A stretch of 64,000 nucleotides of DNA, from contig PKVY01000059.1 of assembly GCA_003131625.1 (NCBI GenBank), forward strand, positions 1-64,000, in the 5' to 3' direction. This DNA is from Acidobacterium sp. (GTDB lineage: Bacteria > Acidobacteriota > Terriglobia > Terriglobales > Acidobacteriaceae). The notes beneath the pieces are model-generated. The model was not told where the DNA came from, ran no database searches, and saw only the letters and a program-made list of their open reading frames with translations. Within the stretch, counting starts at the first letter, position 1, and each line of letters opens with the position of its first letter. Shown here in pieces: positions 5,541 through 60,157 of the stretch. Both the position numbers and the translations under genes were made by a program.

Positions 5541-7109
<1,569 letters not shown>

Positions 7110-7153
7110 TCAGAACCAGCCATTGTAAGGCAGTGCAGAGATGTGTTGCTGGT

Positions 7154-7633
7154 TCAGGCGCGCTTCTGCTTGCGGCTGGCGCGCCAGAAGGAGCTGACGG
7201 TGAACCAGGCGAAGAGCACGGCGAAGGCGGCGTAGAGAGGGAGATGGTGGTCGTGCCATCCAGCGGATTTGTAGAGCTGCCAGGAGTGGACCGCGAAAAC
7301 CAATGTGAAAATGGCGAAGAACGAGCCGGTGATCTGGAGGGTGAGGATGCCGGTGGCGTGGGCGAACGGACGCCACATGGATGCGCCGAAGCGCCCTGCA
7401 CCGCGAGCGAGGCGACGGCTGCCCTCGGCGATGGACGGCGCGGAAGGAAGGGCGGGACCAGGCCTTTTTGGTACAGCGGTTGCGGTGGGAGCAGGCTGCG
7501 TGGCGGCGGGAGAGGGTTGCGTAGCGGCGGATCGCTGAAGGGCCGCAGCAGCCCCGGCGGTTCCGTCGCGCAGCTTCTCGGCCGCGACGCGCGCGCCAAT
7601 GCCCAGAGCTCGGCCGAGGCGATTCGGCTGCAT
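7154..7633 (-). CDS. Small membrane protein, unknown function
   Basis: 159 aa. The N-terminal half is low-complexity (Ala/Pro/Thr/Gln-rich, residues about 25-65). The C-terminal half has two hydrophobic segments (about 98-117 and 130-149) and ends in a basic tail SRKQKRA. No family recognised. The ATG lies 6 nt after a -10-like TAGACT and has no ribosome site, so the mRNA may be leaderless. It precedes the mutase gene on the same strand. Confidence 0.6.
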   Translation of the reverse strand: MQPNRLGRALGIGARVAAEKLRDGTAGAAAALQRSAATQPSPAATQPAPTATAVPKRPGPALPSAPSIAEGSRRLARGAGRFGASMWRPFAHATGILTLQITGSFFAIFTLVFAVHSWQLYKSAGWHDHHLPLYAAFAVLFAWFTVSSFWRASRKQKRA

Positions 7634-7639
7634 GGGAAA

Positions 7640-7645
7640 AGTCTA
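7640..7645 (-). promoter_or_regulatory. -10 element of a probable leaderless gene
   Basis: TAGACT on the minus strand ends 6 nt before the ATG at 7633. No Shine-Dalgarno sequence fits between. Confidence 0.4.
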
Positions 7646-7763
7646 GCAGCGCGACAGAAGCGGGGGCACGATTCGGATTGCCCAGTGGGAACATCAGAAT
7701 ATAAGGTAAGGGAATCGGCGTGGGCAGCTCGGAACTGCGAAGCCGGGAAAACGAGGTCCTGAC

Positions 7764-8102
7764 TTGAATCAAAAACTCCGCAAGCTGGTTCAGCAACTGG
7801 GCGAGGCGATCCACGAGAGCGTGTCGGAGTCGCCGCGCATTGCAGGCGTGGTCGCCGATATTCGCCGGCAGGGTTTTGAAGTGATGCTCATGCTGGAGGC
7901 GACGATCGGGCTGAACGAAGTGGAGGAGCAGCCAGAGGGTGCGCTGGATGCATCGAAGACAGCGCGGGAGCGCGCCGACGCGGAGGAACAGGGCACATTT
8001 ACCGCGCAGGATCTGCATTTCCTGAAGTCGCTGCGGATTTCAATCGCGGGTGAGCATGGGGAACAGGCAGAAGAGGGACAAGGAGAGCAGGAGGACGTGT
8101 GA
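7764..8102 (+). CDS. Small acidic protein, unknown function
   Basis: 112 aa. Starts at TTG (7764) with GAGGT 8 nt upstream. Sequence such as LVQQLGEAIHESVSESPRIA and FEVMLMLEATIGL suggests a helical protein; the tail is rich in Glu/Gln and Gly. No known domain recognised. It is divergent from 7154-7633. Confidence 0.6.
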   Translation: MNQKLRKLVQQLGEAIHESVSESPRIAGVVADIRRQGFEVMLMLEATIGLNEVEEQPEGALDASKTARERADAEEQGTFTAQDLHFLKSLRISIAGEHGEQAEEGQGEQEDV

Positions 8103-8268
8103 TGTGCGTGCAGGCTGAACTGCGACGACGGGCGCGCGGTTCGCCGGGGTTGTGATATATCTGGCCTTCGCCCTACCGCGAGCGCCAACATGGGCCTGCC
8201 TGAGACCCCGGTCGCCGACAAAGCAGCGGGAAGGCAGCAAGTTCAGGCAAGAGCCGTGAGAGGCGATC

Positions 8269-9534
8269 ATGCCGATGAGAGATACTCTGGGCGTACTTCT
8301 GGCGGGCGGAGCCGGAGAACGGCTTTTTCCGCTGACGCGCGATCGAGCCAAGCCGGCAGTTCCCTTTGGCGGGCAGTACCGCATCATCGACATCACACTT
8401 TCCAACTGCATCAACTCCGATCTGCGCCGGGTGTACATCCTGACGCAGTACAAGGCTCTGTCGCTGAACCGGCACATCCGCGAAGGGTGGACCAGCGTTG
8501 TGGCGCAGGAGCTGGGCGAGTTCATCGAGATTCTGCCGCCGATGCAGCGGGTGAGCGCGAACTGGTACATGGGCACGGCGGACGCGGTCTACCAGAACAT
8601 CTATTCGATTGGATCGGAGCAGCCGAAGCACGTGCTGATCCTTTCCGGCGATCACATATACAAAATGCACTACGGCAAGATGCTGCGGCAGCATCTGGAT
8701 TCGGGCGCCGATGTGACGCTGGCAACGCTGCCGATCGAGCCGCAGGAGGTTGCACGGTTCGGCATTGTAGAAGTGGCGCGCAATGGCGAAGTGGTTGGAT
8801 TCCTCGAGAAGCCGAAGAAGACGGAGCTGCGCTCGCCTTTCAATCCGAACATGGTGGACGCTTCGATGGGCGTTTACCTGTTCAACACCGACGTACTGCT
8901 GCCGGCGCTGATCAAGGATGCCGAAGATCCTGAGTCGCAGCACGATTTCGGGCACAATATTCTGCCGGCGATTTTGGGAAAGTACAAGCTGTTCGCCTAC
9001 AACTTCGTCGACGAGAACCGCAAGGAAGCGCTGTACTGGCGCGACGTGGGAACGCTGGAAGCTTTTTACGACGCGAACATGGACGTAGCAGCGGTGTCGC
9101 CGATTTTCAACCTGTACGACAACAGCTGGCCGATTCGAACGCGGGCACGGCAGTATCCACCGGCGAAATTCGTGTTTGGCGAACCGGGACGAACCGGCAT
9201 GGCGATCAACTCCATCGTTTCGGGCGGTTGCATCGTTTCCGGCGCCGTGGTGCGGAACAGCGTGCTGTCACAGGATGTGCGCGTGAACTCGTACTCGGAG
9301 GTGGATTCGAGCATCGTGTTCACGCACGTAAACATCGGGCGGCATTGCCGGATTAAGAAGGCGATCATCGACCGCGACGTGCATCTGCCGGAAGGAACGG
9401 TGATCGGCTACGACTCGAACGACGACCGGAAGAACTACTTCGTGACGCCGAGTGGGCTGACGGTGGTGACGCGGGATTATTCGCTGTATGAGAATCCGGT
9501 GGCGCCGGATTTCCTGCAGGAGCGCAGAGAGTAG
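8269..9534 (+). CDS. glgC: Glucose-1-phosphate adenylyltransferase
   Basis: 421 aa, the usual length. It makes ADP-glucose from ATP and glucose-1-phosphate, the committed step of bacterial glycogen synthesis. The nucleotide-binding loop LLAGGAGERLFPLT, then AKPAVPFGGQYRIIDITLSN, the catalytic-region segment GTADAVYQN, ILSGDHIYKM, and the substrate-site segment FLEKPKK are all present, followed by a C-terminal left-handed beta-helix with hexapeptide character. ATG 8269 has AGAGG upstream. No other glg gene is in the window. Confidence 0.95.
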   Translation: MPMRDTLGVLLAGGAGERLFPLTRDRAKPAVPFGGQYRIIDITLSNCINSDLRRVYILTQYKALSLNRHIREGWTSVVAQELGEFIEILPPMQRVSANWYMGTADAVYQNIYSIGSEQPKHVLILSGDHIYKMHYGKMLRQHLDSGADVTLATLPIEPQEVARFGIVEVARNGEVVGFLEKPKKTELRSPFNPNMVDASMGVYLFNTDVLLPALIKDAEDPESQHDFGHNILPAILGKYKLFAYNFVDENRKEALYWRDVGTLEAFYDANMDVAAVSPIFNLYDNSWPIRTRARQYPPAKFVFGEPGRTGMAINSIVSGGCIVSGAVVRNSVLSQDVRVNSYSEVDSSIVFTHVNIGRHCRIKKAIIDRDVHLPEGTVIGYDSNDDRKNYFVTPSGLTVVTRDYSLYENPVAPDFLQERRE

Positions 9535-9541
9535 AGAGCCA

Positions 9542-9575
9542 GCCCGCAGCCGGCAGCCTGGTAGCCGGTGGCTCG
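9542..9575. repeat. Heptanucleotide tandem repeat, GCC-type
   Basis: Imperfect copies of GCCNGNA at 7-base spacing just after glgC. It belongs to the same class as the repeats at 30282 and 59978. Confidence 0.45.
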
Positions 9576-9611
9576 TTCCCGCGATTGGGGAAATGGTTTT
9601 GCCGACGCAAT

Positions 9612-9650
9612 TCCCACATCTGCCAAAAGCGGGCAGATGTGGGGCACCCG
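9612..9650. repeat. Palindromic REP-like element, copy 1
   Basis: CCCACATCTGCC and GGCAGATGTGGG form a perfect 12-bp stem around a short A-rich loop, followed by GCACCC. Two further copies lie at 62142 and 62226. It sits between glgC and holA. Confidence 0.7.
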
Positions 9651-9673
9651 ACGGGTCGCGTAGACTGGAGCAA

Positions 9674-10810
9674 ATGGGCGCAGGATTCGCGGCGACGGAT
9701 CGGTTTCTGGCTGAGGTGAAGGAGAATCGTCTGCGAGCCGGGTACGTGCTCGTGGGAGACGATGTGTTTCTCTACGAGCGATGCCGCAGAGCGGTGCTGG
9801 ACGCGCTGGTTCCTGCGGATTTGCGGGACTTTTGCCTTTCGGAAATCGACCTGGCGGAGACGAATATTTTTGAGGCGCTCGATCGGGCGCAGACTCCTTC
9901 GCTGATGGCGCCGTTTCAGGTGCTATTCATCCGCAATTTGAAGCAGATGTACACGCGGGGCGCGAAGAAGGAGGAATTCGCGGCGCTGGAGGCGTATTTC
10001 CGGTCGCCGAATCCGCAGGCGCTGGTGCTTTTTGTGGCGGATCATTTGCGGATTCCTTCGGACCCGCGGCGCATGGATCTGCAGGACAAGGATCGGTACG
10101 AGCGCATTCGAGAGACGCTGGGCGACTGGTGCGGTCTGGTGGAACTGGCCCGCGTCGACGAGGTGGACGCGCTGAAGTGGATGGCGGCGGAGGCGAAGCG
10201 GCGCGAAGTGGTGTTCGAGCAGGATGCGGCGCGGGAGCTGGCTGACGCGCTGGGCGCGGACATGATGCTGATTGCGTCCGAGATGGAGAAGCTGGTGCTC
10301 TATGCCGGAGCGAAGCGGCACGTGACGCTGGGCGATGTGGAGACGATGGTGCTGGCGGCGAAGCAGCGGTCGCTGTACGAGCTGACGGATGCGATTTCGG
10401 CGAAGGATCGCGCGCGTGCGCTGAGCTTGCTGCATGGGTTGCTGAATGCTTCGGATGGCGGGGAGGACTCGGCGATCGGCCATCTATATATGCTGGCGCG
10501 GACGTTCCGGCAGATGCTGGTGATCCTGGAAAAAAATGTGCGGGACTCGCGAGCGATCTGGCAGGCACTGTGGCAAGGGTTCCGGATGCCTCCTTTTGCG
10601 GCGGAGGATGTGATCCGGCAGGCGCGGCGGTACAAGTCGCGCCGGGAACTGACGCGGGCGCTGCGGCTGATTGCTCGCGCGGATCTGGAGCTGCGGTCGC
10701 AGCCTCCGGATAAGCGGCTGGTGCTGGAGCGGCTGGTGCTGGAGCTGGCGAGCGAGCCGAAGGCGGGGGTGGTAGCTGCGATGAGTCCGCAGTATGCGAT
10801 GGAGTGGTGA
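9674..10810 (+). CDS. holA: DNA polymerase III delta subunit
   Basis: 378 aa. The clamp-loader delta subunit opens the beta clamp. Segments such as YVLVGDDVFLYERCRRAV, FQVLFIRNLKQM, LADALGADMMLIASEMEKL and the C-terminal helical collar domain fit HolA in order and length. I start at ATG 9674; in-frame starts further upstream would translate the REP element. A TAGACT hexamer (9661-9666) ends 7 nt before the ATG, so the message may be nearly leaderless, although GGAG also lies in that spacer. Confidence 0.85.
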   Translation: MGAGFAATDRFLAEVKENRLRAGYVLVGDDVFLYERCRRAVLDALVPADLRDFCLSEIDLAETNIFEALDRAQTPSLMAPFQVLFIRNLKQMYTRGAKKEEFAALEAYFRSPNPQALVLFVADHLRIPSDPRRMDLQDKDRYERIRETLGDWCGLVELARVDEVDALKWMAAEAKRREVVFEQDAARELADALGADMMLIASEMEKLVLYAGAKRHVTLGDVETMVLAAKQRSLYELTDAISAKDRARALSLLHGLLNASDGGEDSAIGHLYMLARTFRQMLVILEKNVRDSRAIWQALWQGFRMPPFAAEDVIRQARRYKSRRELTRALRLIARADLELRSQPPDKRLVLERLVLELASEPKAGVVAAMSPQYAMEW

Positions 10811-10819
10811 GCCGGAGCA

Positions 10820-10844
10820 GGGCACCGGGCTCCGGGCACCGGGG
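10820..10844. repeat. Heptanucleotide repeat, GGGCACC type
   Basis: GGGCACC, GGGCTCC, GGGCACC and GGGG follow each other at 7-base spacing between holA and parE. Confidence 0.5.
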
Positions 10845-10858
10845 TCAAGGCAGAGGGC

Positions 10859-11149
10859 TCAGTATCCGGCTTCGCGGCCGTGGCGGACCGCGAGGATCAC
10901 GATTTGCCTGCCGTCGAAGTGATAGAGGGCGACGTAGGCACCGTGACCGAATTCGATGACCCATTCGCGGAATTCGGGGAGCATCCCGTCGACAGGTCGA
11001 CCGATCTCCGGGTGGGTGGCGAGGGCTTTCACTCCACGGCGGATGGTGGCAACGGCGCGGCGGGGTGCGTCGGGGCTTTTGGGGGCCAGGAAATCGTAGA
11101 GACGGGCGAGATCGGCCAGAGCCGGCTGGGACCACCTCAATCGTGGCAT
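10859..11149 (-). CDS. parE: ParE/RelE-family toxin
   Basis: 96 aa. WSQPALADLARLYDFLA, HPEIGRPVDG and the terminal VALYHFDGRQIVILAVRHGR are the ParE pattern. ParE toxins poison DNA gyrase; other RelE-fold members cut mRNA, and the sequence does not prove which applies. It overlaps the antitoxin gene by 13 bp, so translation is coupled. Confidence 0.85.
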   Translation of the reverse strand: MPRLRWSQPALADLARLYDFLAPKSPDAPRRAVATIRRGVKALATHPEIGRPVDGMLPEFREWVIEFGHGAYVALYHFDGRQIVILAVRHGREAGY

Positions 11150-11421
11150 TTAGGAGGAGCGGCGCGCTTGCCCGCTTCAAGTTTGGCCAGCCATGCATCG
11201 GCTTCCGCAGCGGTGACGTGAAGGCCGGTGGTCTGGTAATGGTTCCAGGCGGCGAGAGCGTCCTGGCGGAGCTGCTCCCGCTTCTCTTCTCGCTCAACGT
11301 ACTGTTCGACGGCCTCGCGCATGATCCAATGCGCGGTTCGGCGGCGTGACGACGCAAGGCGCTGGACGCGCTCTTTCGTCTCGGTGTCGAGCTTCAGGCT
11401 GGTTGTGGCTGACCGTGGCAT
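11137..11421 (-). CDS. parD: Ribbon-helix-helix antitoxin partner of ParE
   Basis: 94 aa. The N-terminal TTSLKLDTETKERVQRLA followed by HWIMREAVEQYVE is a CopG/ParD-type ribbon-helix-helix, which binds DNA as a dimer; the C-terminal part would wrap the toxin. It is the first gene of a two-gene operon. Upstream (11422-11455) a -10-like TAGTAT (11452-11447) and the repeated ACACCT may form the autoregulatory site, but this is weak. Confidence 0.8.
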   Translation of the reverse strand: MPRSATTSLKLDTETKERVQRLASSRRRTAHWIMREAVEQYVEREEKREQLRQDALAAWNHYQTTGLHVTAAEADAWLAKLEAGKRAAPPKCHD

Positions 11422-11511
11422 GGCAGGTGTTCTAAGGTGTTACCTCATACTACTGTAGCAGAGTCCTGGCCGCGGACACGGGAGGAGATTCGTAAACACT
11501 GCAGCATTCCG

Positions 11512-13965
11512 CTACTCCTCACGCATGAGGGTGGAGGGGTTGACGCGGAGCGCTCGGCGGGCCGGGATGGCCGACGCGACCGCGCCGATCAGAGTCATGG
11601 TGGCGATGGCTCCGAGGAGGACGAGGGGATCGCGGGGATCGGCCTGATAGACGATGTGGCCGAGCAGGCGGCTGAAGAAGATTCCGGCGAGCAGACCCAG
11701 CACTGAACCGACCGCGAGCAGAAGTATGGGACGACCGATGGCTGCGGTCATGACCTGGGTGCGGCGCGCGCCGAGAGCGATGCGGATGCCGAGTTCCTTC
11801 ATGCGCTTGCTGACGCTGTAGGCGGCCATGCCGAAGATGCCGGTGAGGGCGAGCATGGCGGCGAGCAGGCCCATGACACCGAGGGCGACGGTAGCGGCTT
11901 GTGCGGGGAAGAACGTGGGGCGCAACGATTCGGGCCAGCTCTGGAGGGTGATGGGGACGTTCGGGTCGATGGCGCTGAGGACGCGCTGGAGCGCGGCGGC
12001 CATCTGGTTGGGCGCGAGATGCGAGCGGACGACGAGGCTGGTTTCGCTCACGTCGCCTTGCGGCAGGGGCAGGTAGACGACGGGTTGCGGCGACTCCTGG
12101 AGGTCGTGGTACTTGCCGTCTTCGGCGATGCCGACGACTTCAGTGAGGTGGTCGAAGAGAATGAAGCGCTGGCCGATGGGCGGGGTGCGGGGCCACATTT
12201 GGCGGGCGAAGGTTGCGTTCACGATGGCGACGTACGGCTTGTCCGTTGTGTCCTGCCAGCTGACGTCGCGGCCGCTGAGGAGGCGCGTGCCGGCGGCTTC
12301 GAGGTATCCCGGCGACAGGGTGAAGACGTAGGGGGCGAGGACGGAATTGTGGAGGCTGAACTCGGTTGTGCCGGGAGGAAAGATGGGAATCCCGTGCATG
12401 CCGCCGGTCATGGGGGTGCGGTTCACCGTGCCTGCGGCGGTGACGCCGGGGATGTGCTGCGCGGCTTCGATGATGGCTTTCTCTTTCTCAAGGACGACGT
12501 CGTCTGCGTATCCTGCGTGGCTGAGGTCGAGGTCGGCGAGCATGGCGCCCTGGGGCTGGAAACCCAGCGGAGCACGGAGTTCGCGCATCATGCCGCGCAC
12601 GGCGACCAGCGAGGCTGTGACCAGTAATGTGCAGATGGCGATTTGCGCGCCGAGCAGCAGGTCACGCAGGGCAAAGCGGCGGAGGGGTGTGGAATCCGCC
12701 GGTCCGCTTTTCATGGCCTGGAGGGGACTGCTCTGCCAGGCACGGCGGGCGGGAAGCATGCCGAAGAGCAGCGCGCTGGCGAGGGTGAAGGCGAGGCCTG
12801 CCAGGCAGACACGCGCGTCGACGCTGACGGGCAGCTGGCCGTAGGGGGAATGCCAGCGGTTGAGCGCGGCCAGCAGCAGACTCGCGCTGGCGAACCCCAC
12901 GGCTCCGCCGATCAGCGAGACGATGACTGCTTCGGTGAGCAGCTGGCGCATGAGGCGGCGGCGGCTCGATCCGAGGGCGACGCGGAGGGCGAGCTCGCGG
13001 CTGCGATCGGCGGCACGGGCCGCGAAGAGGCTGGCGAGATTGGCGCAGGCGGCGGCGAGCACGAGCAGCGCGAGGGCGGTGACGCTCCAGAGGAATCCGC
13101 GGATGACTTCTCCGTCGTCGCCGAAGAGTCCGGGATGGATAAGGCGCAGAGGTTGGCCGTCGTCGGTCTGGGGATATTCCTTCGCGAGCTGGGCAGCGAT
13201 GGCGTTGAGGTTTTCGGTGGCCTGCTCGGGGGTCACGCCGGGTTTCAGTCGGCCGATGACGGTGACGGCGACCGAGGTGCGGCTCTGGAGGTAGTCCGAA
13301 CCGCTGAGTTGCTGTTCGTTCATCATGGGGATCCAGTAGTCGGGCCAGACGAAGCGCTCGGCGCCGTGGAACTGCGGGGACGCAACGCCGATGACCGTGA
13401 ACGGATGCTTGTTGAGTTCGACGGTCGAGCCGATGATTCCGGGATCAGCATGAAACGCGCTGCGCCAGAGCGCATCGCTCAGGACGACGCAGGGCGCTGA
13501 GTTGGGGCCGTGCTCGTCGGCGGCGTGGAAGAAGCGGCCGGCCTGGGGCTCGACGCCGAGGAGGTCGAAATAATTGCCGGTGACTTCATCGCCGTGGACC
13601 TCGATGGCCTCGCCATGCCAGAACAGAGCCGCGCTGGAGTATCCGTTAATGGCGGCCATTCCGGTGAAGGCGGTGTTGCGCCGGCGAAAATCTTCGAAGT
13701 CGGGATACGAGGTGGTGATGAGCCGGAAGCTCGCCCATGCTTGATGGCGCAACTGGTAGAGGCTCTGCGGTTCGCGCACTTCGAGTGAGTGCAGGAGGAC
13801 GGCATTGAGCACGCCGAAGACGACGACGTTAGCGCCGATGCCGAGGGCGAGGGTGATCAGCGCGGTTGCAGCGAATCCTGGGGAGCGCTTGAGCTGGCGC
13901 AGGGCATAGCGGATATCGCGACCGAGGCTGTCGAGGGTGAAGGCGGCGTCGGAGGCGGTGGCCAT
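11512..13965 (-). CDS. ADOP-type ABC permease (MacB/FtsX fold), orphan
   Basis: 817 aa, matching the acidobacterial duplicated orphan permease class. It has an N-terminal amphipathic region and RDIRYALRQLKRSPGFAATALITLALGIGANVV, then a MacB-type periplasmic domain, an FtsX triplet of membrane segments (about 280-410), a second half with another periplasmic domain (about 440-680), and a second FtsX domain ending in SAIPARRALRVNPSTLMREE. No ATPase gene is adjacent, as is typical of the class. ATG 13965 was preferred to one 90 nt upstream because AAGGGG precedes it and the family starts here. The substrate is unknown. Confidence 0.88.
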   Translation of the reverse strand: MATASDAAFTLDSLGRDIRYALRQLKRSPGFAATALITLALGIGANVVVFGVLNAVLLHSLEVREPQSLYQLRHQAWASFRLITTSYPDFEDFRRRNTAFTGMAAINGYSSAALFWHGEAIEVHGDEVTGNYFDLLGVEPQAGRFFHAADEHGPNSAPCVVLSDALWRSAFHADPGIIGSTVELNKHPFTVIGVASPQFHGAERFVWPDYWIPMMNEQQLSGSDYLQSRTSVAVTVIGRLKPGVTPEQATENLNAIAAQLAKEYPQTDDGQPLRLIHPGLFGDDGEVIRGFLWSVTALALLVLAAACANLASLFAARAADRSRELALRVALGSSRRRLMRQLLTEAVIVSLIGGAVGFASASLLLAALNRWHSPYGQLPVSVDARVCLAGLAFTLASALLFGMLPARRAWQSSPLQAMKSGPADSTPLRRFALRDLLLGAQIAICTLLVTASLVAVRGMMRELRAPLGFQPQGAMLADLDLSHAGYADDVVLEKEKAIIEAAQHIPGVTAAGTVNRTPMTGGMHGIPIFPPGTTEFSLHNSVLAPYVFTLSPGYLEAAGTRLLSGRDVSWQDTTDKPYVAIVNATFARQMWPRTPPIGQRFILFDHLTEVVGIAEDGKYHDLQESPQPVVYLPLPQGDVSETSLVVRSHLAPNQMAAALQRVLSAIDPNVPITLQSWPESLRPTFFPAQAATVALGVMGLLAAMLALTGIFGMAAYSVSKRMKELGIRIALGARRTQVMTAAIGRPILLLAVGSVLGLLAGIFFSRLLGHIVYQADPRDPLVLLGAIATMTLIGAVASAIPARRALRVNPSTLMREE

Positions 13966-14101
13966 GGCTGGAATGACCCCTTGACTTTCCGGGATGGGAG
14001 GACTGTAGGCCGGGTGGTTCAGGGGCGTCAAGGGAAACTGCCGCGAAACGACCAATTGTCAGGCCCCGAGACTTCAGGTTGCTCCCAATTTGGGAACACG
14101 T

Positions 14102-14107
14102 TATTCT
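14102..14107 (+). promoter_or_regulatory. -10 element directly before higB
   Basis: TATTCT ends 6 nt before the GTG start of higB, and there is no ribosome site between. This suggests a leaderless toxin-antitoxin transcript. Confidence 0.4.
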
Positions 14108-14113
14108 GGACAG

Positions 14114-14467
14114 GTGAGAGTGATCGCGCGCGGCACACTCCGTTTGTTTGTGGAGAACAGTGTCGAGAAGGGTCTTCAGGCAGCGGTCAAGGGGCAACTG
14201 GATGCGTGGTATGCGGAAACTGCGAAGGCTACATGGAAGAATTCGGCGGAACTGAAGAAGCAGTTCGCATCGGCGGGCATCGTTTCCTCAGAGCGGGTGG
14301 TTTTTAACATCACGGGCAACGATTATCGCCTTGTTGCAGCGATTAATTATCAATTCCAGATCGTTTTGATCCTCTGGATTGGAACACATAAGGAATACGA
14401 CAGGATCAGCGTCGAGAAGGTTCGATATGACAAGGAACGGTATAAGGGTTCGCCCAATCCGAAATGA
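14114..14467 (+). CDS. higB: HigB-family mRNA interferase toxin
   Basis: 117 aa from GTG 14114, the first residue of the family's usual start (VRVIARGTLRLFVE). WKNSAELKKQFASAG, VVFNITGNDYRLVAAINY and the C-terminal WIGTHKEYDRI are the HigB signature (RelE-like fold, ribosome-dependent mRNA cleavage). It is toxin-first and overlaps higA by 41 bp, as usual for hig operons. Confidence 0.88.
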   Translation: MRVIARGTLRLFVENSVEKGLQAAVKGQLDAWYAETAKATWKNSAELKKQFASAGIVSSERVVFNITGNDYRLVAAINYQFQIVLILWIGTHKEYDRISVEKVRYDKERYKGSPNPK

Positions 14468-14942
14468 AGAAGACCACGACGCCGCAGTTGCGAGGATTGG
14501 CGAATTGATTGGGGCTGCGGCCGGCACGCCTGAGGGTGACGAACTGGATGTGCTGGCTACTCTTGCTGAGGCGTGGGAGGCGAGGAATCACCCCATTGAT
14601 GCTCCGGATCCGATCACGGCGATTCAATTTCGCATGGAGCAGCAGGGATTGACGCGCAAGCACCTGGAACGAATGATCGGGAGCCGCGCTCGCGTGTCCG
14701 AAGTGCTGACAGGAAAGCGGAAGCTGACCATCGATATGATCCGCAAGGTCCGGTCGGGGCTCGGGATCTCCGCGGACCTGCTGATCGCTCCAGGGTCTTC
14801 CTCGCAGCGCAGGAAATCGCTCGGAAGACAGACTGTACTCGGGTCACGGGCTTCGGGAAACCACGTCTCAGGAAAGCAAACCCGGGGGGCGAAGGGCGCC
14901 GGGGCTGAAAAGCCTCTTGTCTTGCGGGGCGGTTTTCGCTAA
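14427..14942 (+). CDS. higA: HigA-family antitoxin with a C-terminal extension
   Basis: 171 aa. I start at ATG 14427 (AAGG 6 nt upstream), giving VRPIRNEEDHDAAVARI, the normal HigA beginning. EGDELDVLATLAEAWE and IQFRMEQQGLTRKHLERMIG lead into a helix-turn-helix (SRARVSEVLTGKRKLTIDMI). Typical homologues end soon after the DLLI segment (about residue 120). Here about 50 Ser/Arg/Gly-rich residues follow with no family resemblance, so a lost stop codon or a fused downstream repeat is likely. It binds and neutralises HigB and represses the operon. Confidence 0.85.
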   Translation: MTRNGIRVRPIRNEEDHDAAVARIGELIGAAAGTPEGDELDVLATLAEAWEARNHPIDAPDPITAIQFRMEQQGLTRKHLERMIGSRARVSEVLTGKRKLTIDMIRKVRSGLGISADLLIAPGSSSQRRKSLGRQTVLGSRASGNHVSGKQTRGAKGAGAEKPLVLRGGFR

Positions 14943-15010
14943 GTTAGGACCCGGCGCTTTTCTGTTCACGAGCTTTGCTCGAAAAATCCACGTCAGGCGC
15001 CTCACGCCAT

Positions 15011-15034
15011 CCCGGGTCAAGAGATCGAGCCGGG
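15011..15034. repeat. CCCGGGTC hairpin repeat, degenerate copy
   Basis: CCCGGGTC, an 8-base loop ending in ATC, then GAGCCGGG. Better copies lie at 19026 and 27819. Confidence 0.45.
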
Positions 15035-15180
15035 ACGGTCCGGCTATCGTCTTTCGCTTCATCGCTGGGTCCCATCTGACAGTAACTTTGGCTGCGTCTG
15101 GCTCCTTCGGGGTATCCACTTTCGTTCTGCTCTGGTTCACACTCGGGAACGAGATCCCGATTCAGGGTTGAGGGTCGCCG

Positions 15181-18100
15181 ATGCCTGGCTGCGGCCGGGG
15201 GTTGGCGGAGGGAATTCACAGAATGGTGGGTTGTGGCGCCAGGGCGCGGTTGGCCTGCCTGACGATGGTGTCGCTCGTCGTGGGATCTCCCGGACGTGTG
15301 TTCGGACTCGATCCAGGCAGAGCTTTTTCGCAGTACATCCAGACGAACTGGACGACCGAAACGGGTCTGCCGCAGACGTCGGTGTATTCCATCGCACAAA
15401 CGAAGGACGGGTATTTGTGGGTGGGCACGGAGCAGGGGCTGGCGCGCTTCGATGGCGTGCGCTTCGTTGTGTTCAACCGGAAAAACACGCCGGCGCTGCC
15501 TGCGAATTACGTGCATCGGCTGCTGGGGGCGCGCGACGGGAGCTTGTGGATCGGCACCGACGCCGGGCTGACGCATCTGCAAGACGGGGTCTGGACGACG
15601 TACTCAACCGCGACAGGACTTTCCGGCAACGATATCGAGGCGCTGGTGGAAGGCAGCGACGGCAGCGTGTGGGTGGGGACCGATCAGGGGCTGGACCGAT
15701 TGCAGAATGGCAAGGTTCGCGTGTGGCACAGCGCAGACGGGCTGCCCGGCGAGCAGGTGACGGCGCTGCAGGTGGATGCGAAGGGTCTTCTGTGGGTCGC
15801 GACGCAAGGGGGACTGGCGAGCTTTGACGGGGGCCAGTTCACGGCGTACTCAACGCAGAACGGGCTGCCGGGGAATGCGCTCTCGGCGCTGGCGCTGGCT
15901 CCGGATGGCGCGATTTGGGCGGCTACGACCGACGGACAGCTGGCGCGTGAGACGGGCGGTATGCTGACGACGGCGCCGGTCCAGCTGCCGCACAACGATG
16001 TGGAGGCGATGCTGTTCGATCTGGATGGCAATCTCTGGATCGGATTCCAGAATCAGGGGCTGGCGCGGCTGCACGATGGAGTGCTGACCCAGATCGACTC
16101 GCGCAACGGACTGCCGGGGCAATCGGTCGAGGCTCTGCTGGAGGACGCGGAACACAACGTGTGGGTGGGCTTCTTCGACGGCGGCCTGCTGCAACTGCGG
16201 AATGGGAAGTTCACCGTCTACGGGAAGCCGGAAGGAATACCGTCGGCCGTTATTTGCTGTTCAGTAGAAACGCCGGACGGGGCGGTGTGGCTGGCCACGG
16301 CGACGGGCGAACTGACGGAGATGCTGCCGGACGGCAGCCTGCACGTGTACACGAGCAAAGATGGGTTGCCGGCGGAAGGAATCCATTCGCTGCTGCTGGG
16401 GCACGACGGCACGATTTGGATCGGGCACCGGCACGGGGTGCTGACGCGCTACCAGAACGGGCACTTCGATCATTTTCAGGATCCTCAGTCGACGAATCAT
16501 GCGATCGACGCGCTGCTCGAAGACAAAGACGGCCAGTTGTGGATTGGCACCTACGGATCGGGAGTGGCGCGTTTCGCCGATGGCCAGTTCGACCATATAA
16601 CGACGACCGGCGATGTGCCGGCGATGGCGCAGGGCCCGGATGGCGCGCTGTGGGTGGGCACCGATGGCGAGGGCGTGCTGCGCATGCAAAGCGGGGCGAC
16701 CACCCTTTACACGAAGACGAATGGGCTGATCAACGACCACGTGATCGCACTGCTGGTGGATGGCGATGGAGTGGTGTGGGTGGGCACCAGCTCGGGCGGG
16801 CTGAATCGGATCGAAAACGGTCGCGTCACGTCCTATACGCCTGCACAGGGGCTGTTCGATTCGACGGTCGGCAACCTGGTGGAAGACAAACCTGGCAACC
16901 TGTGGATGGGATCCGACAACGGGATCTTTCGCGTCTCGAAGCAGGAGCTGAATTCTTTTGCGCAGGGCAGAATCTCCGCGATTCACAGTGTCGGGTACGA
17001 CACTTCCGACGGGCTGCGCTCACGCGAGACGATGCAGGGCGGGACGGGTTCGGGCTCGATGGGTCCGGATGGCCGGATCTGGATGCCGACGCTGAATGGT
17101 TTGGCCGTGGTGGACCCGAGGATTGCGGTGCTGCCCGATCCGCCGCTGCGGGTGCGAATCGAGAGTGTGATGTTTGGAGGGGAAGTTGTGCCGATCGCGG
17201 GAAACCTGCATTTGGGACCGGGATCGGACCGGCTGAACTTCCGGTTTACGACAGCGAGTTTTATCGCTCCGTGGACGATTAAGTTTCGCTACCGGCTGGA
17301 GGGCTACGACCGCGGCTGGATTGAGGCGAGCAATACGCGCAGCGCGGGATACACGAATCTGCCGCCGGGGAGTTACACATTCGTGGTGGAGGCTGCGCGC
17401 CACAATGGTGAGTGGACCCCCAGCGCGGGCGTGGTGGCGTTCAGCATTCTGCCGCCGTGGTACCGCACGCGGGCGGCCTGGTTGCTGTGGATTCTGGGCG
17501 CCATCCTGCTGACGTGGGTCATTGTGGAACTGCGCACACGCAGCCTGATACGGCACCGCAAGCAGCTGGAGACGGTGGTGGCGGAACGCACCGCACAACT
17601 GCGTAGCGAGACCCTTGCCCTCGCTGAAGCGCGCGAAGAGCTGGAACTGCAGGCGACGCACGATTCGCTGACGGGGCTGTGGAACCGGGCCGCGATTCTG
17701 GAACACATGGAGCGGGAAGTGGGGCGGGCCCGGCGCGAAGGGACGGTTCTGGGCATCGTGCTCGCGGATCTGGACCACTTCAAGCAGATTAACGACACGC
17801 GCGGCCACCTTTGCGGCGACAAGGTATTGCGCGAGGCGGCGCAACGATTGCAAGGCTGCCTGCGCGATTACGATTTCATCGGGCGTTACGGCGGGGAGGA
17901 GTTCCTGATCCTGATGCCGGGGTGCGATCCGGTCGAGAATACGGCCCGGCTGGAGGGGCTTGTGGCGAGCATCCACGAGCATACGTTCGCCAACGCAGGA
18001 AAGAACATCCGGATTAGCTGCAGTTTTGGCGTGACGGCGTTTCGGCCGGACCGCGCGGTGACGTCTCTCGAGGAATTGCTGGTCGCGGCGGACAATGCGC

Positions 18101-28044: not shown

Positions 28045-28293
28045 GGTGGTGCTCCTGATCTCGTTTTGGCGCGCTCGTTGGAGGCGCGGAGCATCCTGCT
28101 GAGCTGCGCGGGGATTCACCTGATCTGTGCAGGGAGATTCACCACACCGGCGAGCAAAGCCGGGGAAGCGGCGGGACGCTCTTTTGGTAATTTTACACGA
28201 CGAAGGTAACGTTCCGGCCGGGTGGGAGTGATCAAAGTCACTGAGGGCCGGTGCTTTGCCCGCTACGCTTCGGGGTAGCTGGGAGTCGTGGGC

Positions 28294-29391
28294 ATGAGCA
28301 CACAAGCCGCAGGCGTGGTGGTTCCGGGCCAGGAAAAACGGAAGAAGAAGCTGGTGCGCCGGGCTGCGCCGGACGGCTCGCAACGGATTCGCCGGGTGGT
28401 GCAGTGGGTGTTCGTGGCGTTGAACGTTTGGATCGGCGCGCAGTTTTATTTGTGGGTGCGCTGGTTTGAGCGTGGGGGCCAGGGCTGGGCGGTGAACCGG
28501 CCAGCGGGCGTGGACGGCTGGCTGCCGATTGCCGGGCTGATGAATTTGAAGTACCTGCTGACGACGGGACGGGTTCCGGCCATGCATCCGGCGGCGATGT
28601 TTCTGCTGATCGCGTTTTTGGCAATGAGCGTGGTGCTGAAGAAGTCGTTTTGCGGGTGGCTGTGCCCGGTAGGGACCGCGTCAGAGACGCTGTGGAAGAT
28701 GGGGCGGCGGGTTTTCGGCCGGAATTTCAGAGTGCCGCGGTGGCTGGATCGTGAGCTGCGAGGGCTGAAGTATCTGCTGCTGGGGTTTTTCGTGTTTGTG
28801 ATCGCGTGGATGCCGGCCGCCGCGCTCAAGGATTTCATGGCGGGGCCGTACGGGACGATTGCCGATGTGAAGATGCTGAACCTCTTCCGGACGATGGGTG
28901 TGGTGGGCATCGCGGTGATGACGGGTCTGGTGGTGCTGTCGGTGCTGATCCAGAATTTCTGGTGCCGGTATTTGTGCCCTTACGGCGCGCTGATGGGGCT
29001 GGCGTCGTTGCTGAGTCCGGTGAAGATTCGGCGCGACACGCAGGCGTGCATCGATTGCGGGAAGTGCAGCAAGGCCTGCCCGTCGAGCCTGAAGGTGGAC
29101 GAGCTGGTGCAGATCCGGTCTGTCGAGTGCACGGCGTGCATGGCGTGCGTGGCGTCGTGCCCGGTGGAGAACGCTCTGCAGCTGGCGCTGCCCGCGGCGA
29201 AGGCTCCGGATGCGGCGGCGCGATGGCGCGGACGCGCCGTAAATCCACGGGCAGTGGCGGCTGTTCTGGCGGTGATTTTCCTGGGCGTGGTGCTGCTGGC
29301 GCGGATGTCAGGGCACTGGCAGACGGCGGTGCCGCGCGCGGTGTACATGCAGCTGGTACCGCATGCGAATGAAGTTAGCCATCCGATGTGA
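28294..29391 (+). CDS. NapH/CcoG-like polyferredoxin membrane protein
   Basis: 365 aa from ATG 28294 (GGGAG 8 nt upstream); a GTG two codons earlier is possible. Several membrane helices carry the cytoplasmic CGWLCPVG and CRYLCPYGALMG motifs, followed by two 4Fe-4S clusters (CIDCGKCSKACP and CTACMACVASCPVENA) and a last helix (about 320-340). The family relays electrons across the membrane to periplasmic reductases or assists metal assembly; the partner is not in the window. The final 13 residues (QLVPHANEVSHPM) recur, diverged, 783 bp downstream. Confidence 0.88.
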   Translation: MSTQAAGVVVPGQEKRKKKLVRRAAPDGSQRIRRVVQWVFVALNVWIGAQFYLWVRWFERGGQGWAVNRPAGVDGWLPIAGLMNLKYLLTTGRVPAMHPAAMFLLIAFLAMSVVLKKSFCGWLCPVGTASETLWKMGRRVFGRNFRVPRWLDRELRGLKYLLLGFFVFVIAWMPAAALKDFMAGPYGTIADVKMLNLFRTMGVVGIAVMTGLVVLSVLIQNFWCRYLCPYGALMGLASLLSPVKIRRDTQACIDCGKCSKACPSSLKVDELVQIRSVECTACMACVASCPVENALQLALPAAKAPDAAARWRGRAVNPRAVAAVLAVIFLGVVLLARMSGHWQTAVPRAVYMQLVPHANEVSHPM

Positions 29392-29462
29392 GGAAGGCGG
29401 CGGCCCGCCGACGGCTCACCTGCAACACTGGGTCATTTTCGCCAAGTTGCTGTCTGCGGCGA

Positions 29463-29468
29463 TATAAT
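29463..29468 (+). promoter_or_regulatory. Consensus -10 before the foreign gene
   Basis: TATAAT, 10 nt before the ATG at 29479. The transcript would start within a few bases of the start codon. Confidence 0.45.
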
Positions 29469-29478
29469 CCGGCCCGAT

Positions 29479-30117
29479 ATGCCGACGCCAAAAACTTGGA
29501 ACAATGCGGAATCACTCATCTCAGACCTGAGGAACGACTGGAAGGTCCGCGGGTCGAACATCGAAGTTAACGATCAGGATTGGCCAACCTGTATAAAAGG
29601 CGCCGTTGGCAGAAATACATTCCGTGCTTTCCAGAAAATGCCGGATAAACCATCAAGTGTGTTCCGTGAATGGGCCTATGATGCACTCGTCAAGCAAGGG
29701 CGCTTTGAAAGGTTGAAGAGTATTCAAACCCAACAAGACTACGATCGATGGCTCGACCAATTAGTCAGCGACCTCCGAATACGATGGAAGGCGAAAATGA
29801 ATCGAGATATGCCGTTCGGACCTTCCTACAAATTGCCCAATCTCGTGATGAAGGTAGTCTGCGAGAGACTCGCCGTATCCGACCGGCAGAGGATAATGCC
29901 TTTTCTTCATGTTCCGCTGGACAGCTACACCCTCTCTGGGATCCGGAAGTGTGTAGCCTTGCCCAATGGACGAGAAATCCCGAAAACGGCGACGATGAAA
30001 TTCATCGACAATCCGGCCACCTACGCGTCTGTCCAGCAGCAAATCAGAGGATTAGCATCAAGAGCAGGTGTCCCCGCCATTGCTTACGACCACTTGGCGT
30101 GGGACCGTGGCCACTGA
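29479..30117 (+). CDS. AT-richer orphan gene, probably acquired
   Basis: 212 aa, no family recognised. Base and codon use are visibly less GC-rich than every neighbour (many AAA, ATA, ACC/ACT and TTC/TTT mixtures). The protein is basic and Trp/Lys/Arg-rich, without signal peptide or membrane segment, and ends in PAIAYDHLAWDRGH. Segments PFGPSYKLPNLVMKVVCERL and MPFLHVPLDSYTL look conserved in style (compact alpha/beta, possibly nucleic-acid related), but that is only an impression. It sits between the true 3' end of the Fe-S gene and a displaced second copy of that end, which points to insertion as a cassette. Confidence 0.7.
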   Translation: MPTPKTWNNAESLISDLRNDWKVRGSNIEVNDQDWPTCIKGAVGRNTFRAFQKMPDKPSSVFREWAYDALVKQGRFERLKSIQTQQDYDRWLDQLVSDLRIRWKAKMNRDMPFGPSYKLPNLVMKVVCERLAVSDRQRIMPFLHVPLDSYTLSGIRKCVALPNGREIPKTATMKFIDNPATYASVQQQIRGLASRAGVPAIAYDHLAWDRGH

Positions 30118-30132
30118 TTCGTAATGGCGCCG

Positions 30133-30174
30133 CAGCTGGTGCCGCATGCGGATGCAGTGAGTCACCCAATGTAG
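30133..30174 (+). repeat. Displaced second copy of the Fe-S gene's 3' end
   Basis: 42 bases ending in TAG translate as QLVPHADAVSHPM, against QLVPHANEVSHPM at 29350-29391. 33 of 42 bases match. Seven codons differ, five of them synonymously, and the stop codon differs too (TAG versus TGA). The two copies bracket the orphan gene. Confidence 0.75.
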
Positions 30175-30187
30175 CGCCGTGTCCTGG

Positions 30188-30273
30188 GTACCCCCCCACC
30201 CCCCTCCCCCCGGGGGTGTGGCAAATGATTCATTTTGCAGGGATGTTTTAGTACCGTGAATCAGGTATTACCC
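30188..30273 (+). repeat. C-rich intergenic repeat, copy A
   Basis: It begins GTACCCCCC, then a C/T tract, a G-rich return arm, GGCAAATGATTCATTTTGC, and the tail GTACCGTGAATCAGGTATTA followed by CCC. Copies B (30338) and C (60026) share the same order. Confidence 0.7.
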
Positions 30274-30281
30274 TTTCGATA

Positions 30282-30334
30282 GCCTGCAGGCGGCAGCCTG
30301 CAGCCCGCAGCACGTGGCCGGTTGCCGGTAGCGA
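30282..30334. repeat. Heptanucleotide repeat, GCCTGCA type
   Basis: GCCTGCA, GGCGGCA, GCCTGCA and GCCCGCA run at 7-base spacing, then decay. It separates copies A and B of the C-rich repeat. Confidence 0.55.
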
Positions 30335-30337
30335 ATG

Positions 30338-30415
30338 GTACCCCCCCTCCCTCGGGTATGGGGCAAGTAGCTCATTTCGCGGGGACGTTTTAGTACTGTA
30401 AATCAGGTATTACCC
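30338..30415 (+). repeat. C-rich intergenic repeat, copy B
   Basis: GTACCCCCCCTCCC, then GGGTATGGGGCAAGTAGCTC, ATTTCGCGGGGACGTTTTAG and the tail GTAAATCAGGTATTACCC. TACCC and GGGTA can pair at the 5' end. The stretch 30416-30597 after it holds nothing recognisable. Confidence 0.7.
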
Positions 30416-30597
30416 CGCGGCGGCGGTAACGGGTTCTGACAGGACCGCAAATCAAGCCGAGATGAGAAAGAACGTGTCGCGCTACAAGGTCGCGCGAGGG
30501 TCCCTTTTGGACCCGGGACAGAGGCTCAGAGCACGGGCGCCGAGCTTGATGGACGATCGTGAACGAGGATTGTCGAAGTCTGGAGCCAGAAACGAAA

Positions 30598-30620
30598 AGG
30601 ACTCGCGCGATGCGAGTCCT
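30598..30620 (-). terminator. Rho-independent terminator of the glycosidase gene
   Basis: AGGACTCGC and GCGAGTCCT form a perfect 9-bp stem with a 5-base loop; on the minus strand it is followed by TTTTCGTTT. It lies 114 nt beyond the stop codon at 30735. Confidence 0.6.
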
Positions 30621-30734
30621 CCTGGTTCAGGTTCCGTATTCAGTGTGAGGGTCAGAAAGTATCGAGTGCAAGAAGAATCGGCGGAGAACCCAAACTTTGG
30701 TCATGCCTTCGTCGTTGCCACTCCAGCTCGATCC

Positions 30735-33185
30735 TCATTCGGCCTGCAATTCGTAGTGACCGGATTGCGCGAGGTGCAGCGCCAGCCGCGAGCCATTCTC
30801 GACAGCCGTTCCATTTTGGGAAACGCCGTTGACCTTCACTTGTGCCGCACCTGATTTCACCGGGAACAGCACCGTCGCGTCGACGCCATCAGGAATGTCG
30901 ATCACGGCGTGGAGGCCTGGGCTCTCTTTGCTGCCGCCTTCTTTGCGGAGGTCGACTTTGATCAGGCCGCTCGGCGTGGGTTCGGCGCCGCGTGCCCAGT
31001 CGAGATCGAGGAGGTCAGGACGAATGGTGGCTTTTTTGAAACCAGCCTCGGTGGGAACGATGCCGAGAACCTGTTCGAGCAGCCACCAGGAAGGCGCGCT
31101 GGACCAGCCGTGCGCGAGCGAGATGCGGTAGCCAGCGGTGTCGTCGGCTTGCAGATCGACGTGGGGATCGTCTTTGGGCCAGGCGGGATCGTAGGCTTCC
31201 CAGAAGCTGGTTGCGCCTTCGTTGATCATGCCACCCCAATATTCGCGAATCCAGGCAAGGGCGGCGTCGCGATGATCGACGCGCGCCATGGCATCGAGGA
31301 CGTAGGAGCCGTAGTACGGGCTGACGACGTCGGGACGCCAGGTGGGCTTGCCGACGTTGGAGAGGACGTTCTGCCAGATCGAAGAATATTGATCGGGCGT
31401 GGCGACGCCGGAGATGACGGCCATGGCGTTGGTCTGCCAGCGCGGACCGAAGGATCCACCGGCAAACTGCGAGGCCTGGCTGGTGTGGGCTAACTCGTCG
31501 GCGCGCTGGGCGAAGTGGCTGGCGTTCTGCGTGTCACCCAGTTCCTGAAGCAGCCGCGCGCCGGCGCGGTAAGCGCGGACGTATTCGATGGTGGTGGTGG
31601 CGCGTGTAGAGGGCGTGTCGCCATTGAGCTCGAGAGCCCAGTCAACATAGAGCCACTGATGGGTGTGGTTGATGAAGTTGTTCTGCGCGTCGAAGTCCTG
31701 GTCCATGAACTGGAGGAGGCCGACGATGCGGTCGTGCATGGAGGCGACGAACTCTTTGCGGCCGCTGTGCAGGTAGTAGTGCTCGAGCTCCGTGAACCAG
31801 TACGACGAGTAACCGGGAATGCCGTTGACATGCGACTGGATGGGCAGTGGACCGATGAGGCGGGTGAGCGTGTCTTCGATGAGGAACTGGTCGCCGAAGA
31901 CGTCGTCGATCACGCGTCCGCTGACGTCGGTGTCGCCCATCCAGCGGCCGCGATCGCGCTTGGGAGCGTCCCAGATGTCGTCCTGCATGCAGAGGTGGCT
32001 GGTGTAGGCGCCGGTTTCCCAGATGCGGTTGAGGAGCGCGTCAGAAGATTCGAAGGAGCCCTGGTAGCGGACGGGATAATAGATGTCTTCGAGGTGGATG
32101 GATTTGAAGCGGAGAACGGGCGGACCGGAGAGGAAGCGGATGCGGGCGTAGCGGAAGGCGGATTTGGGGCCGACGCCGGTGCCATTGGGAGTGAGGTGCA
32201 GAAGGTTCGTGCCGAGGTAGGGTTCGTTGTCGACTTCGCCGAGGGACTCGCCGTAGGCGATGGAGATGGTGGCAGGCGCGTCGGTGTCGGAGACGATCTG
32301 AACGCGGCCGTCGACTTCGCGGCCGAAGTCGAGGGTGATGCCGGGGATGAATTCGTCGGGGGAGCGGTTGACGGCGAATTTCACCGTGAATTCATGGGCG
32401 GAGTTGTCGGTGGGTGTGGTGAGGGCGTCGGTATTTTCGTAGGAGCCCTGGCCTGCGTAGACGTCCTGAAGTTCGGCGGCGGGGAGAACGGTATGGGCGA
32501 GGAAGGGCGATTCACCTTCATAGCCGGGCCAGTCGTAGAGGCCGGCGTCGTTGTTCCACTGGAGAAAATCGATGTTGCCTTCGATGGAACCGCGGGCGGC
32601 AACTGCGGGCCACGAGCTGTCGTTGAAATCGGTGTTTTGCCAGCGGTCGGCGGCGCGAGTGGACGCTTTCCATTCGGGACCGCTGATGAGGATGGGCGGA
32701 GCGAGGACGCCGGGCGCGGCGGGAATGATTTTGACGACGAGAGTGCGTCCGTGGTCGGCCTTGATGGCGAGGACGTTGTCGCCGGGATGGAGCTGGCGCG
32801 CGACGTCGACATGGAAAACGTGCATGTCGAGGCGGGAGAGCGGGTCGGTATTGAAGTGGGCCGCTTGCCAGCCGTTGAGGTAAACCTCAGCGGAGCGCGG
32901 GCCGGCGAGATAGAGCTCGGCTGCCTCGGGAACGCTGTCGAGATGCAGGTGGACGCGAAACCAGCGGGGTTCGTCGCGCTGGGCGCGGCTGAGGTTGGGC
33001 GCGTCGCTGGTCCAGATGTACTGCTCGGGGAGCGGCTGGTGGAAGGAGGAGAAGAGGACAGGTTGGGAGAGGTTGCGGGTGGGGTCGAGCTGACCAGGAG
33101 GCGGCTGCGAGGGCGCGGACTGGGCTGAGAGGAGAGCGGGCGTGGCGGCGAGCAGAGACAGAAGAAGGAAGGCGGAGCGGCGCAT
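30735..33185 (-). CDS. Secreted GH78-like (alpha-L-rhamnosidase-type) glycosidase
   Basis: 816 aa from ATG 33185 (GAGGAG 9 nt upstream; signal peptide MRRSAFLLLSLLAATPALLS). It has an N-terminal beta-sandwich region (about 60-370), then an (alpha/alpha)6 barrel with DDIWDAPKRDRGRWMGDTDV, the acidic-rich segment typical of GH78 catalysis, and a C-terminal beta-sandwich (about 730-816). It probably removes terminal rhamnose or a similar sugar from polysaccharide or glycoconjugates outside the cytoplasm. GH78 is the best guess, but related six-hairpin families cannot be excluded. Confidence 0.8.
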   Translation of the reverse strand: MRRSAFLLLSLLAATPALLSAQSAPSQPPPGQLDPTRNLSQPVLFSSFHQPLPEQYIWTSDAPNLSRAQRDEPRWFRVHLHLDSVPEAAELYLAGPRSAEVYLNGWQAAHFNTDPLSRLDMHVFHVDVARQLHPGDNVLAIKADHGRTLVVKIIPAAPGVLAPPILISGPEWKASTRAADRWQNTDFNDSSWPAVAARGSIEGNIDFLQWNNDAGLYDWPGYEGESPFLAHTVLPAAELQDVYAGQGSYENTDALTTPTDNSAHEFTVKFAVNRSPDEFIPGITLDFGREVDGRVQIVSDTDAPATISIAYGESLGEVDNEPYLGTNLLHLTPNGTGVGPKSAFRYARIRFLSGPPVLRFKSIHLEDIYYPVRYQGSFESSDALLNRIWETGAYTSHLCMQDDIWDAPKRDRGRWMGDTDVSGRVIDDVFGDQFLIEDTLTRLIGPLPIQSHVNGIPGYSSYWFTELEHYYLHSGRKEFVASMHDRIVGLLQFMDQDFDAQNNFINHTHQWLYVDWALELNGDTPSTRATTTIEYVRAYRAGARLLQELGDTQNASHFAQRADELAHTSQASQFAGGSFGPRWQTNAMAVISGVATPDQYSSIWQNVLSNVGKPTWRPDVVSPYYGSYVLDAMARVDHRDAALAWIREYWGGMINEGATSFWEAYDPAWPKDDPHVDLQADDTAGYRISLAHGWSSAPSWWLLEQVLGIVPTEAGFKKATIRPDLLDLDWARGAEPTPSGLIKVDLRKEGGSKESPGLHAVIDIPDGVDATVLFPVKSGAAQVKVNGVSQNGTAVENGSRLALHLAQSGHYELQAE

Positions 33186-60108: not shown

Positions 60109-60157
60109 TCCTCCGTTCCGCTTAGCGGGATTCGCGTACCTTCGCGCGCAACAAAAA

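What the first reader, a model, noticed from the sequence alone, without database searches (positions are those of the whole stretch)
29350..30174. Foreign gene inserted at a duplicated, recoded gene 3' end
The last 42 bases of the Fe-S gene recur 783 bp downstream as QLVPHADAVSHPM-stop. 33 of 42 bases match, with five of seven codon changes synonymous, so the second copy looks as if it diverged under coding constraint. Between the copies sits a single AT-richer gene with a consensus TATAAT and an almost leaderless start. This is what an element that integrates at a gene's 3' end and supplies a replacement tail would leave. The orphan protein resembles nothing I know, and two C-rich repeats follow directly.
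Basis: partly seen in the sequence, partly recalled or inferred. Interest (0 to 1): 0.8.

Follow-up and report, generated by a model that had tools for sequence, protein, structure and literature searches.

The report
Mobile AGOG-like gene inserted beside Fe-S gene
A single foreign gene, probably coding for a distant relative of a DNA-repair enzyme (a DNA glycosylase), has jumped in just behind a metabolic gene of an Acidobacteria-type bacterium and left a short duplicate of that gene's end behind it; close relatives lack both, so the insertion is real, but nothing shows a dedicated element that swaps gene ends.

Summary
The repeat is real: 29349-29389 and 30132-30172 match 34/41 (33/42 as stated), far above shuffles. 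Insertion is supported. The closest genome (G005) and the next ones (G007, G008) have the same neighbours, one gene end and no orphan. None of 11 congeners carries the orphan.

'Element that supplies a replacement tail' is not supported. There is no recombinase in the 783-bp unit and no second use of the site (300 family genomes). The only good orphan homologue (G041, 48%) is itself a lone AT-rich insertion at an unrelated site without repeats; its congener G043 has that site empty. Polarised against relatives, the differences do not show coding constraint on copy 2. Traces of native flank beside both copies fit a long target duplication, a pattern known for restriction-type genes.

The orphan is not wholly unknown. 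It carries the active-site pattern of archaeal 8-oxoguanine glycosylase AGOG (K118, K125, D148, D204, W208 matching K140, K147, D172, D218, W222), although it fails Pfam's AGOG cut-off. Best reading: a solitary AGOG-like glycosylase gene from the mobile defence/repair pool, inserted after the G000/G005 split with a duplication of at least 41 bp. Fold and activity are untested.

The parts
28288..29391 (+). 4Fe-4S membrane protein gene (NapH/CcoG-like), host gene whose 3' end is duplicated
   Evidence: Fer4_5 E 4.7e-20 and other Fer4 models; orthologue in most congeners
29349..29391 (+). copy 1: functional 3' end of the Fe-S gene (QLVPHANEVSHPM-stop)
   Evidence: tail motif conserved in congeners
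29392..29404 (+). possible rest of the native downstream flank next to copy 1 (GGAAGGCGGCGG)
   Evidence: start-anchored alignment to the G005 and G007 flanks, shuffle P 0.017 and 0.027; weak
29463..29468 (+). TATAAT, candidate -10 box giving a near-leaderless transcript of the orphan
   Evidence: consensus match only, 0.5 expected by chance in the region
29479..30117 (+). orphan gene, 212 aa, AGOG-like glycosylase candidate; active-site residues K118, K125, D148, D204, W208
   Evidence: homologue L003 in G041 (48%)
30132..30172 (+). copy 2: detached duplicate of the Fe-S gene end (QLVPHADAVSHPM)
   Evidence: 34/41 identity to copy 1; 90% to the G005 gene end, E 1.6e-8
30173..30185 (+). possible native downstream sequence after copy 2 (AGCGCCGTGTCC)
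   Evidence: matches G005 flank AGCGCCGGTCC, shuffle P 0.002 to 0.05 depending on length taken
30187..30415 (+). two C-rich dispersed repeats, later or independent insertions, not part of the unit

Best explanation
A single foreign gene was inserted directly behind the Fe-S gene in this lineage after it split from its closest relative G005, and the insertion left a duplicate of the target (at least 41 bp, perhaps about 56) on its far side. [quoted passage not shown] Copy 1 still ends the Fe-S protein, and copy 2 is a drifting leftover. The captured gene codes for a small protein with the active-site pattern of the AGOG/OGG2 kind of helix-hairpin-helix DNA glycosylase. It most likely excises a damaged or modified base, with K118 as nucleophile and D148 as its activator. 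Shown: duplication, empty sites, foreign composition, patchy homologues, motif register. Inferred: the break-repair mechanism, the fold, the chemistry, and the tie to the mobile defence pool.
For: Empty sites: the G005 contigs C17 and C25 overlap by 22 bp across the gene end, leaving one tail and then the same rhamnosidase gene; G007 and G008 likewise. Orphan absent from all 11 congeners. Age fits: fourfold sites differ by 0.24 (JC) between G000 and G005, so two copies made just after the split should now differ at about 6 of 41 sites; 7 are seen. Native-like flank traces beside both copies. Homologue in G041 is a lone AT-rich insertion between an alpha-galactosidase gene and miaA; congener G043 has that interval without it. 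Glycosylase pattern: found only in the orphan and the G041 protein among 1692 open frames, and in 2 of 300,000 shuffles. An unguided alignment puts K125, D148, D204 and W208 on AGOG K147, D172, D218 and W222. AGOG weak hit E 0.083, hhalign P 0.003. Functional roles of those residues: PMC9638937, PMC3397491. A decayed homologue sits in a restriction-modification island. Known pattern: PMC3031569, PMC1643837.
Against: The G041 insertion shows no duplication, so duplication is not a constant trait. Copy 2 is nearer to the G005 gene end (37/41) than to copy 1 (34/41), which a duplication inside this lineage does not predict, though only one informative site carries this. The flank traces are 10-12 bp long and were noticed after the fact. 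The AGOG match fails the Pfam cut-off (12.7 of 26.1 bits), hhalign probability is 10%, and both structure models are poor (pLDDT 46 and 42). In the unguided alignment K118 itself falls in a gap.
Confidence: 0.5

Rival explanations
1. One reading: an integrative element recombined at the Fe-S gene's 3' end and brought a replacement tail (copy 1), pushing the native tail (copy 2) downstream.
For: Copy 2 shares GAT and GTG with the closest relative G005, copy 1 shares AAT and GTT with the more distant G007. Within copy 1 the ratio of G005-like to G007-like sites is 2:3 against 144:35 in the rest of the gene (Fisher p 0.06). The sequence after copy 2 resembles the G005 flank.
Against: No recombinase in the unit; no other genome uses the site; the homologue in G041 sits elsewhere without a repeat; no ARAGORN-detected tRNA or tmRNA in the window; the phylogenetic signal is one informative site.
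Confidence: 0.2
2. Copy 2 came in with the foreign DNA by recombination from a related species (or is a templated patch copied during break repair), so copy 1 is native and copy 2 never followed the Fe-S gene here.
For: Copy 2 is closer to the G005 gene end than to copy 1; bases after copy 1 resemble the native flank.
Against: What precedes copy 2 is not Fe-S gene sequence; no donor with this arrangement was found among the genomes searched.
Confidence: 0.2
3. Copy 2 is what is left of a full paralogous Fe-S gene that was deleted.
For: A single gene end remains without its gene.
Against: Homology starts abruptly at 30132 after unrelated sequence; no tandem paralogue at this place in any of the congeners read.
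Confidence: 0.05
4. The orphan is unrelated to DNA glycosylases; the motif register is chance in a small, fast-evolving family.
For: No Pfam, NCBIfam, PHROGs or PADLOC match for the orphan; poor fold models; hhalign probability 10%.
Against: The pattern occurs in 2 of 300,000 shuffles and nowhere else in 1692 open frames; the same residues line up unguided and are kept in the G041 protein at 46-48% identity.
Confidence: 0.35

Closest known systems
Insertion with long target duplication (Nobusato et al. 2000, described for Helicobacter restriction-modification genes; cited in PMC3031569 and PMC1643837)
   Same: foreign gene flanked by direct repeats of target sequence; a related genome has one copy and no insert
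   Different: here a solitary gene without a methyltransferase, in Acidobacteriota; copies have diverged to 83%, so the event is old
AGOG, archaeal 8-oxoguanine DNA glycosylase (PF09171; 1XQO, 7OLB, 7OU3)
   Same: K, K+7, hP-x-D, hP-x4-D-x3-W active-site pattern; similar length
   Different: K to D spacing 30 against 32; far below the family cut-off; bacterial and mobile, whereas AGOG is described as exclusively archaeal (PMC3397491)
Anti-phage DNA glycosylases Brig1 and Brig3 (PMC11078745, PMC13160076)
   Same: idea of base excision as defence; lone or island-borne genes from soil DNA
   Different: those belong to the uracil-DNA glycosylase superfamily, not the helix-hairpin-helix one; no defence test here
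Integrative elements that insert at gene 3' ends (tyrosine-recombinase islands; own knowledge)
   Same: repeat of a gene 3' end on the far side of an insert
   Different: no integrase, no conserved attachment core, no second case

Membership tests
Insertion with long target duplication | related genome with one target copy and no insert | tested here: met
   G005, G007, G008
Insertion with long target duplication | insert lies between two copies of target sequence | tested here: met
   41 bp, 34/41, score 47 against at most 33 in 500 shuffles
Insertion with long target duplication | native sequence resumes after the far copy | tested here: inconclusive
   AGCGCCG(T)GTCC resembles G005 flank, P 0.002 to 0.05, post hoc
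3'-end-targeting integrative element | recombinase gene in the unit | tested here: not met
   only the orphan ORF of note; no recombinase family hit
3'-end-targeting integrative element | site or element used in other genomes | tested here: not met
   two tails only in G000 among 300 family genomes sampled; homologue elsewhere lacks repeats
3'-end-targeting integrative element | copy next to the gene is element-derived | tested here: inconclusive
   Fisher p 0.06
AGOG (PF09171) | family score over the curated cut-off | tested here: not met
   no hit for the orphan; 12.7 of 26.1 bits for the G041 homologue
AGOG (PF09171) | catalytic Lys and GPD Asp | tested here: met
   K118 and D148, 30 apart (32 in AGOG), conserved in the G041 protein; K118 is gapped in the unguided alignment
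AGOG (PF09171) | base-recognition Lys, Asp, Trp (K147, D218, W222) | tested here: met
   K125, D204, W208 align unguided
AGOG (PF09171) | HhH-GPD fold | tested here: inconclusive
   models of pLDDT 46 and 42; best VIA Z 4.4 to unrelated chains
AGOG (PF09171) | 8-oxoguanine excision | not testable with these tools
   needs purified protein
Diversity-generating retroelement (template/variable repeat) | differences confined to adenines of the downstream repeat | tested here: not met
   most differences are not at A of copy 2 (sequences)

The most novel reading that the evidence does not exclude
The orphan founds a bacterial, mobile family of AGOG-like base-excising enzymes that acts on modified phage DNA, a second and unrelated glycosylase lineage used for defence besides the uracil-glycosylase-like Brig proteins, and that spreads as a solitary gene.
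Probability: 0.18. Interest if true: 0.7.

Novelty: new variant of a known kind. Interest (0 to 1): 0.4.

Why it matters
It gives a clean case of single-gene insertion with duplicated target in Acidobacteriota, with empty sites for two members of one tiny gene family at unrelated places. If the glycosylase reading holds, an active-site design described as archaeal occurs in mobile bacterial genes and could be a base-excision defence or a horizontally traded repair enzyme.

Tried and rejected
Family libraries gave nothing for the orphan (Pfam, PHROGs, NCBIfam, PADLOC). Phage and plasmid records gave only noise; viral contigs gave none; genome contigs gave none with the protein and only the G041 gene with the alignment. 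Two AlphaFold jobs were too poor to use; the fold comparison listed helical proteins at Z 4.4 or less, and the absence of AGOG there means nothing. A diversity-generating retroelement was rejected on the pattern of differences. A deleted paralogue was rejected on the abrupt homology start. A 16-codon reading frame around copy 2 (ATG just before it) was noted and not pursued. Rfam: none in 29300-30800. The flank repeat test on the G041 insertion was negative.

Full report
What is there. The window lies in an Acidobacteriota genome held in 148 contigs (G000, contig C59; the phylum is inferred from the named relative). The Fe-S gene (28288-29391) codes for a membrane protein with 4Fe-4S domains. 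Flank against flank this scores 47 against a maximum of 33 in 500 shuffles. As a query, copy 2 finds exactly the Fe-S gene end of the sister genome, E 1.6e-8, and of G007, E 2.4e-4. Between the copies is one gene of 212 codons in DNA of about 50% GC, where the surroundings have about 63%.

Is it an insertion? Yes. The nearest genome, G005 (92% protein identity, 91% in DNA over the gene), has its Fe-S gene on two contigs that overlap by 22 bp. Joined there, they give a single gene end, QLVPHADQVSHPM, followed within some tens of bases by the end of the same rhamnosidase-type gene. G007 and G008 also have one end, with the same neighbour close behind it or after a short repeat tract. None of the 11 congeners encodes the orphan, and among 300 family genomes only this one has two tails. 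In the window the two neighbours stand 1.34 kb apart: the orphan unit plus dispersed C-rich repeats, which have dozens of full or partial relatives in this genome and in G005 and are therefore a separate matter.

Is copy 2 under coding constraint? No evidence for it. Of seven differences in the 41 bp, outgroups place two in copy 1 (GTA, CAT), which is the live gene and must change synonymously. Three are placed in copy 2 (GCA, AGT, CCA) and two are unresolved. The TGA/TAG difference may lie beyond the repeat: after ATGT, copy 2 continues AGCGCCGTGTCC, which resembles AGCGCCGGTCC 26 bases further on in the G005 flank. This would be a small deletion rather than a recoded stop. The amount of difference is what drift since the G000/G005 split predicts (fourfold JC 0.24; inference).

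Which copy is older? Not settled. Copy 2 shares GAT with G005, copy 1 shares the A of AAT with G007 and G011. In the gene upstream, sites that separate G005 from G007 go 144:35 with G005; in copy 1 they go 2:3 (Fisher p 0.06), in copy 2 4:1. On the other hand the bases just after copy 1 look like native flank (anchored shuffle P 0.017 and 0.027), and so do those after copy 2 (P 0.002 to 0.05). Native flank beside both copies is what a target duplication leaves. I prefer that reading because no integrase is present and because the family's other insertion has neither a repeat nor a gene-end target.

The other member. G041, of another family in the same order, encodes a homologue (46-48% identity) in a 1-kb AT-rich patch between an alpha-galactosidase gene and miaA. 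Its congener G043 has the two genes side by side without it. No direct or inverted repeat above chance flanks it. So the gene moves, alone, to unrelated intergenic places. More distant traces are a decayed C-terminal piece in G319 inside an island with an Eco57I-type methylase, a restriction-type nuclease, an HNH protein, a PLD-helicase and a KAP ATPase, and an internally deleted one in G594 beside an HD-CE/HATPase gene.

What the protein is. No library names it. The G041 protein has a sub-threshold hit to AGOG (E 0.083). Published AGOG work names K140 and D172 as catalytic, with K147, D218 and W222 at the base. The pattern K-x6-K ... hP-x-D ... hP-x4-D-x3-W fits AGOG and the orphan. It occurs in no other of 1692 open frames of at least 100 codons and in 2 of 300,000 shuffles. 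The pattern was written after seeing both proteins, and a first version with a miscounted spacing missed the orphan, so these figures flatter it. Without guidance MAFFT aligns K125, D148, D204 and W208 with K147, D172, D218 and W222, while K118 falls in a gap although its spacing to K125 equals K140 to K147. hhalign gives P 0.003 but probability 10%. The family cut-off is not met, so I do not file it as AGOG; I say it probably works like one. Both structure models are too weak to add anything.

What is known. Insertion with long target duplication has been described for restriction-modification genes in Helicobacter (Nobusato et al. 2000, as cited in PMC3031569 and PMC1643837). Glycosylases used as phage defence are known in the uracil-glycosylase superfamily (PMC11078745, PMC13160076). 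This case joins the two ideas only by inference; no defence activity has been shown.

Verdict. The insertion is shown; its mechanism is inferred; the tail-replacing element is not supported. The most interesting part is the protein, whose glycosylase nature is plausible but unproven.

Noticed in passing
window 30187-30274 and 30340-30415; G000 and G005 genome-wide: A C-rich dispersed repeat of about 83 bp (ending CATTTTGCAGGGATGTTTTAGTACCGTGAATCAGGTATTACCC) has dozens of full or partial relatives in G000 and many in G005 but few in other congeners; a further match lies at 60028-60109.
   Followed up: partly
window 30583-30687: A second dispersed piece around an inverted repeat (GACTCGCGCGATGCGAGTC) matches places in G004, G006, G010 and G011.
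   Followed up: no
L099 (G319:C3:456000-475500) 5918-17935: Island with KAP ATPase, HNH nuclease, a decayed orphan homologue, a restriction-type nuclease, an Eco57I-type methylase and a PLD-domain helicase.
   Followed up: partly
L101 (G594) 8441-9016: Internally deleted relative of the orphan (NTFRAF motif and IPTSAT motif kept, Lys region lost, Asp replaced) beside an HD-CE/HATPase gene.
   Followed up: partly
G004, G009 Fe-S gene ends (L010, L012): The Fe-S protein tail is longer in some congeners (...SHPGMDGPDS...), so the short HPM end is particular to the clade of G000, G005, G007, G008 and G011 among the genomes read.
   Followed up: no
window 30124-30174: Copy 2 lies in a short open frame with its own ATG, MAPQLVPHADAVSHPM-stop, just after the orphan's stop.
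   Followed up: no
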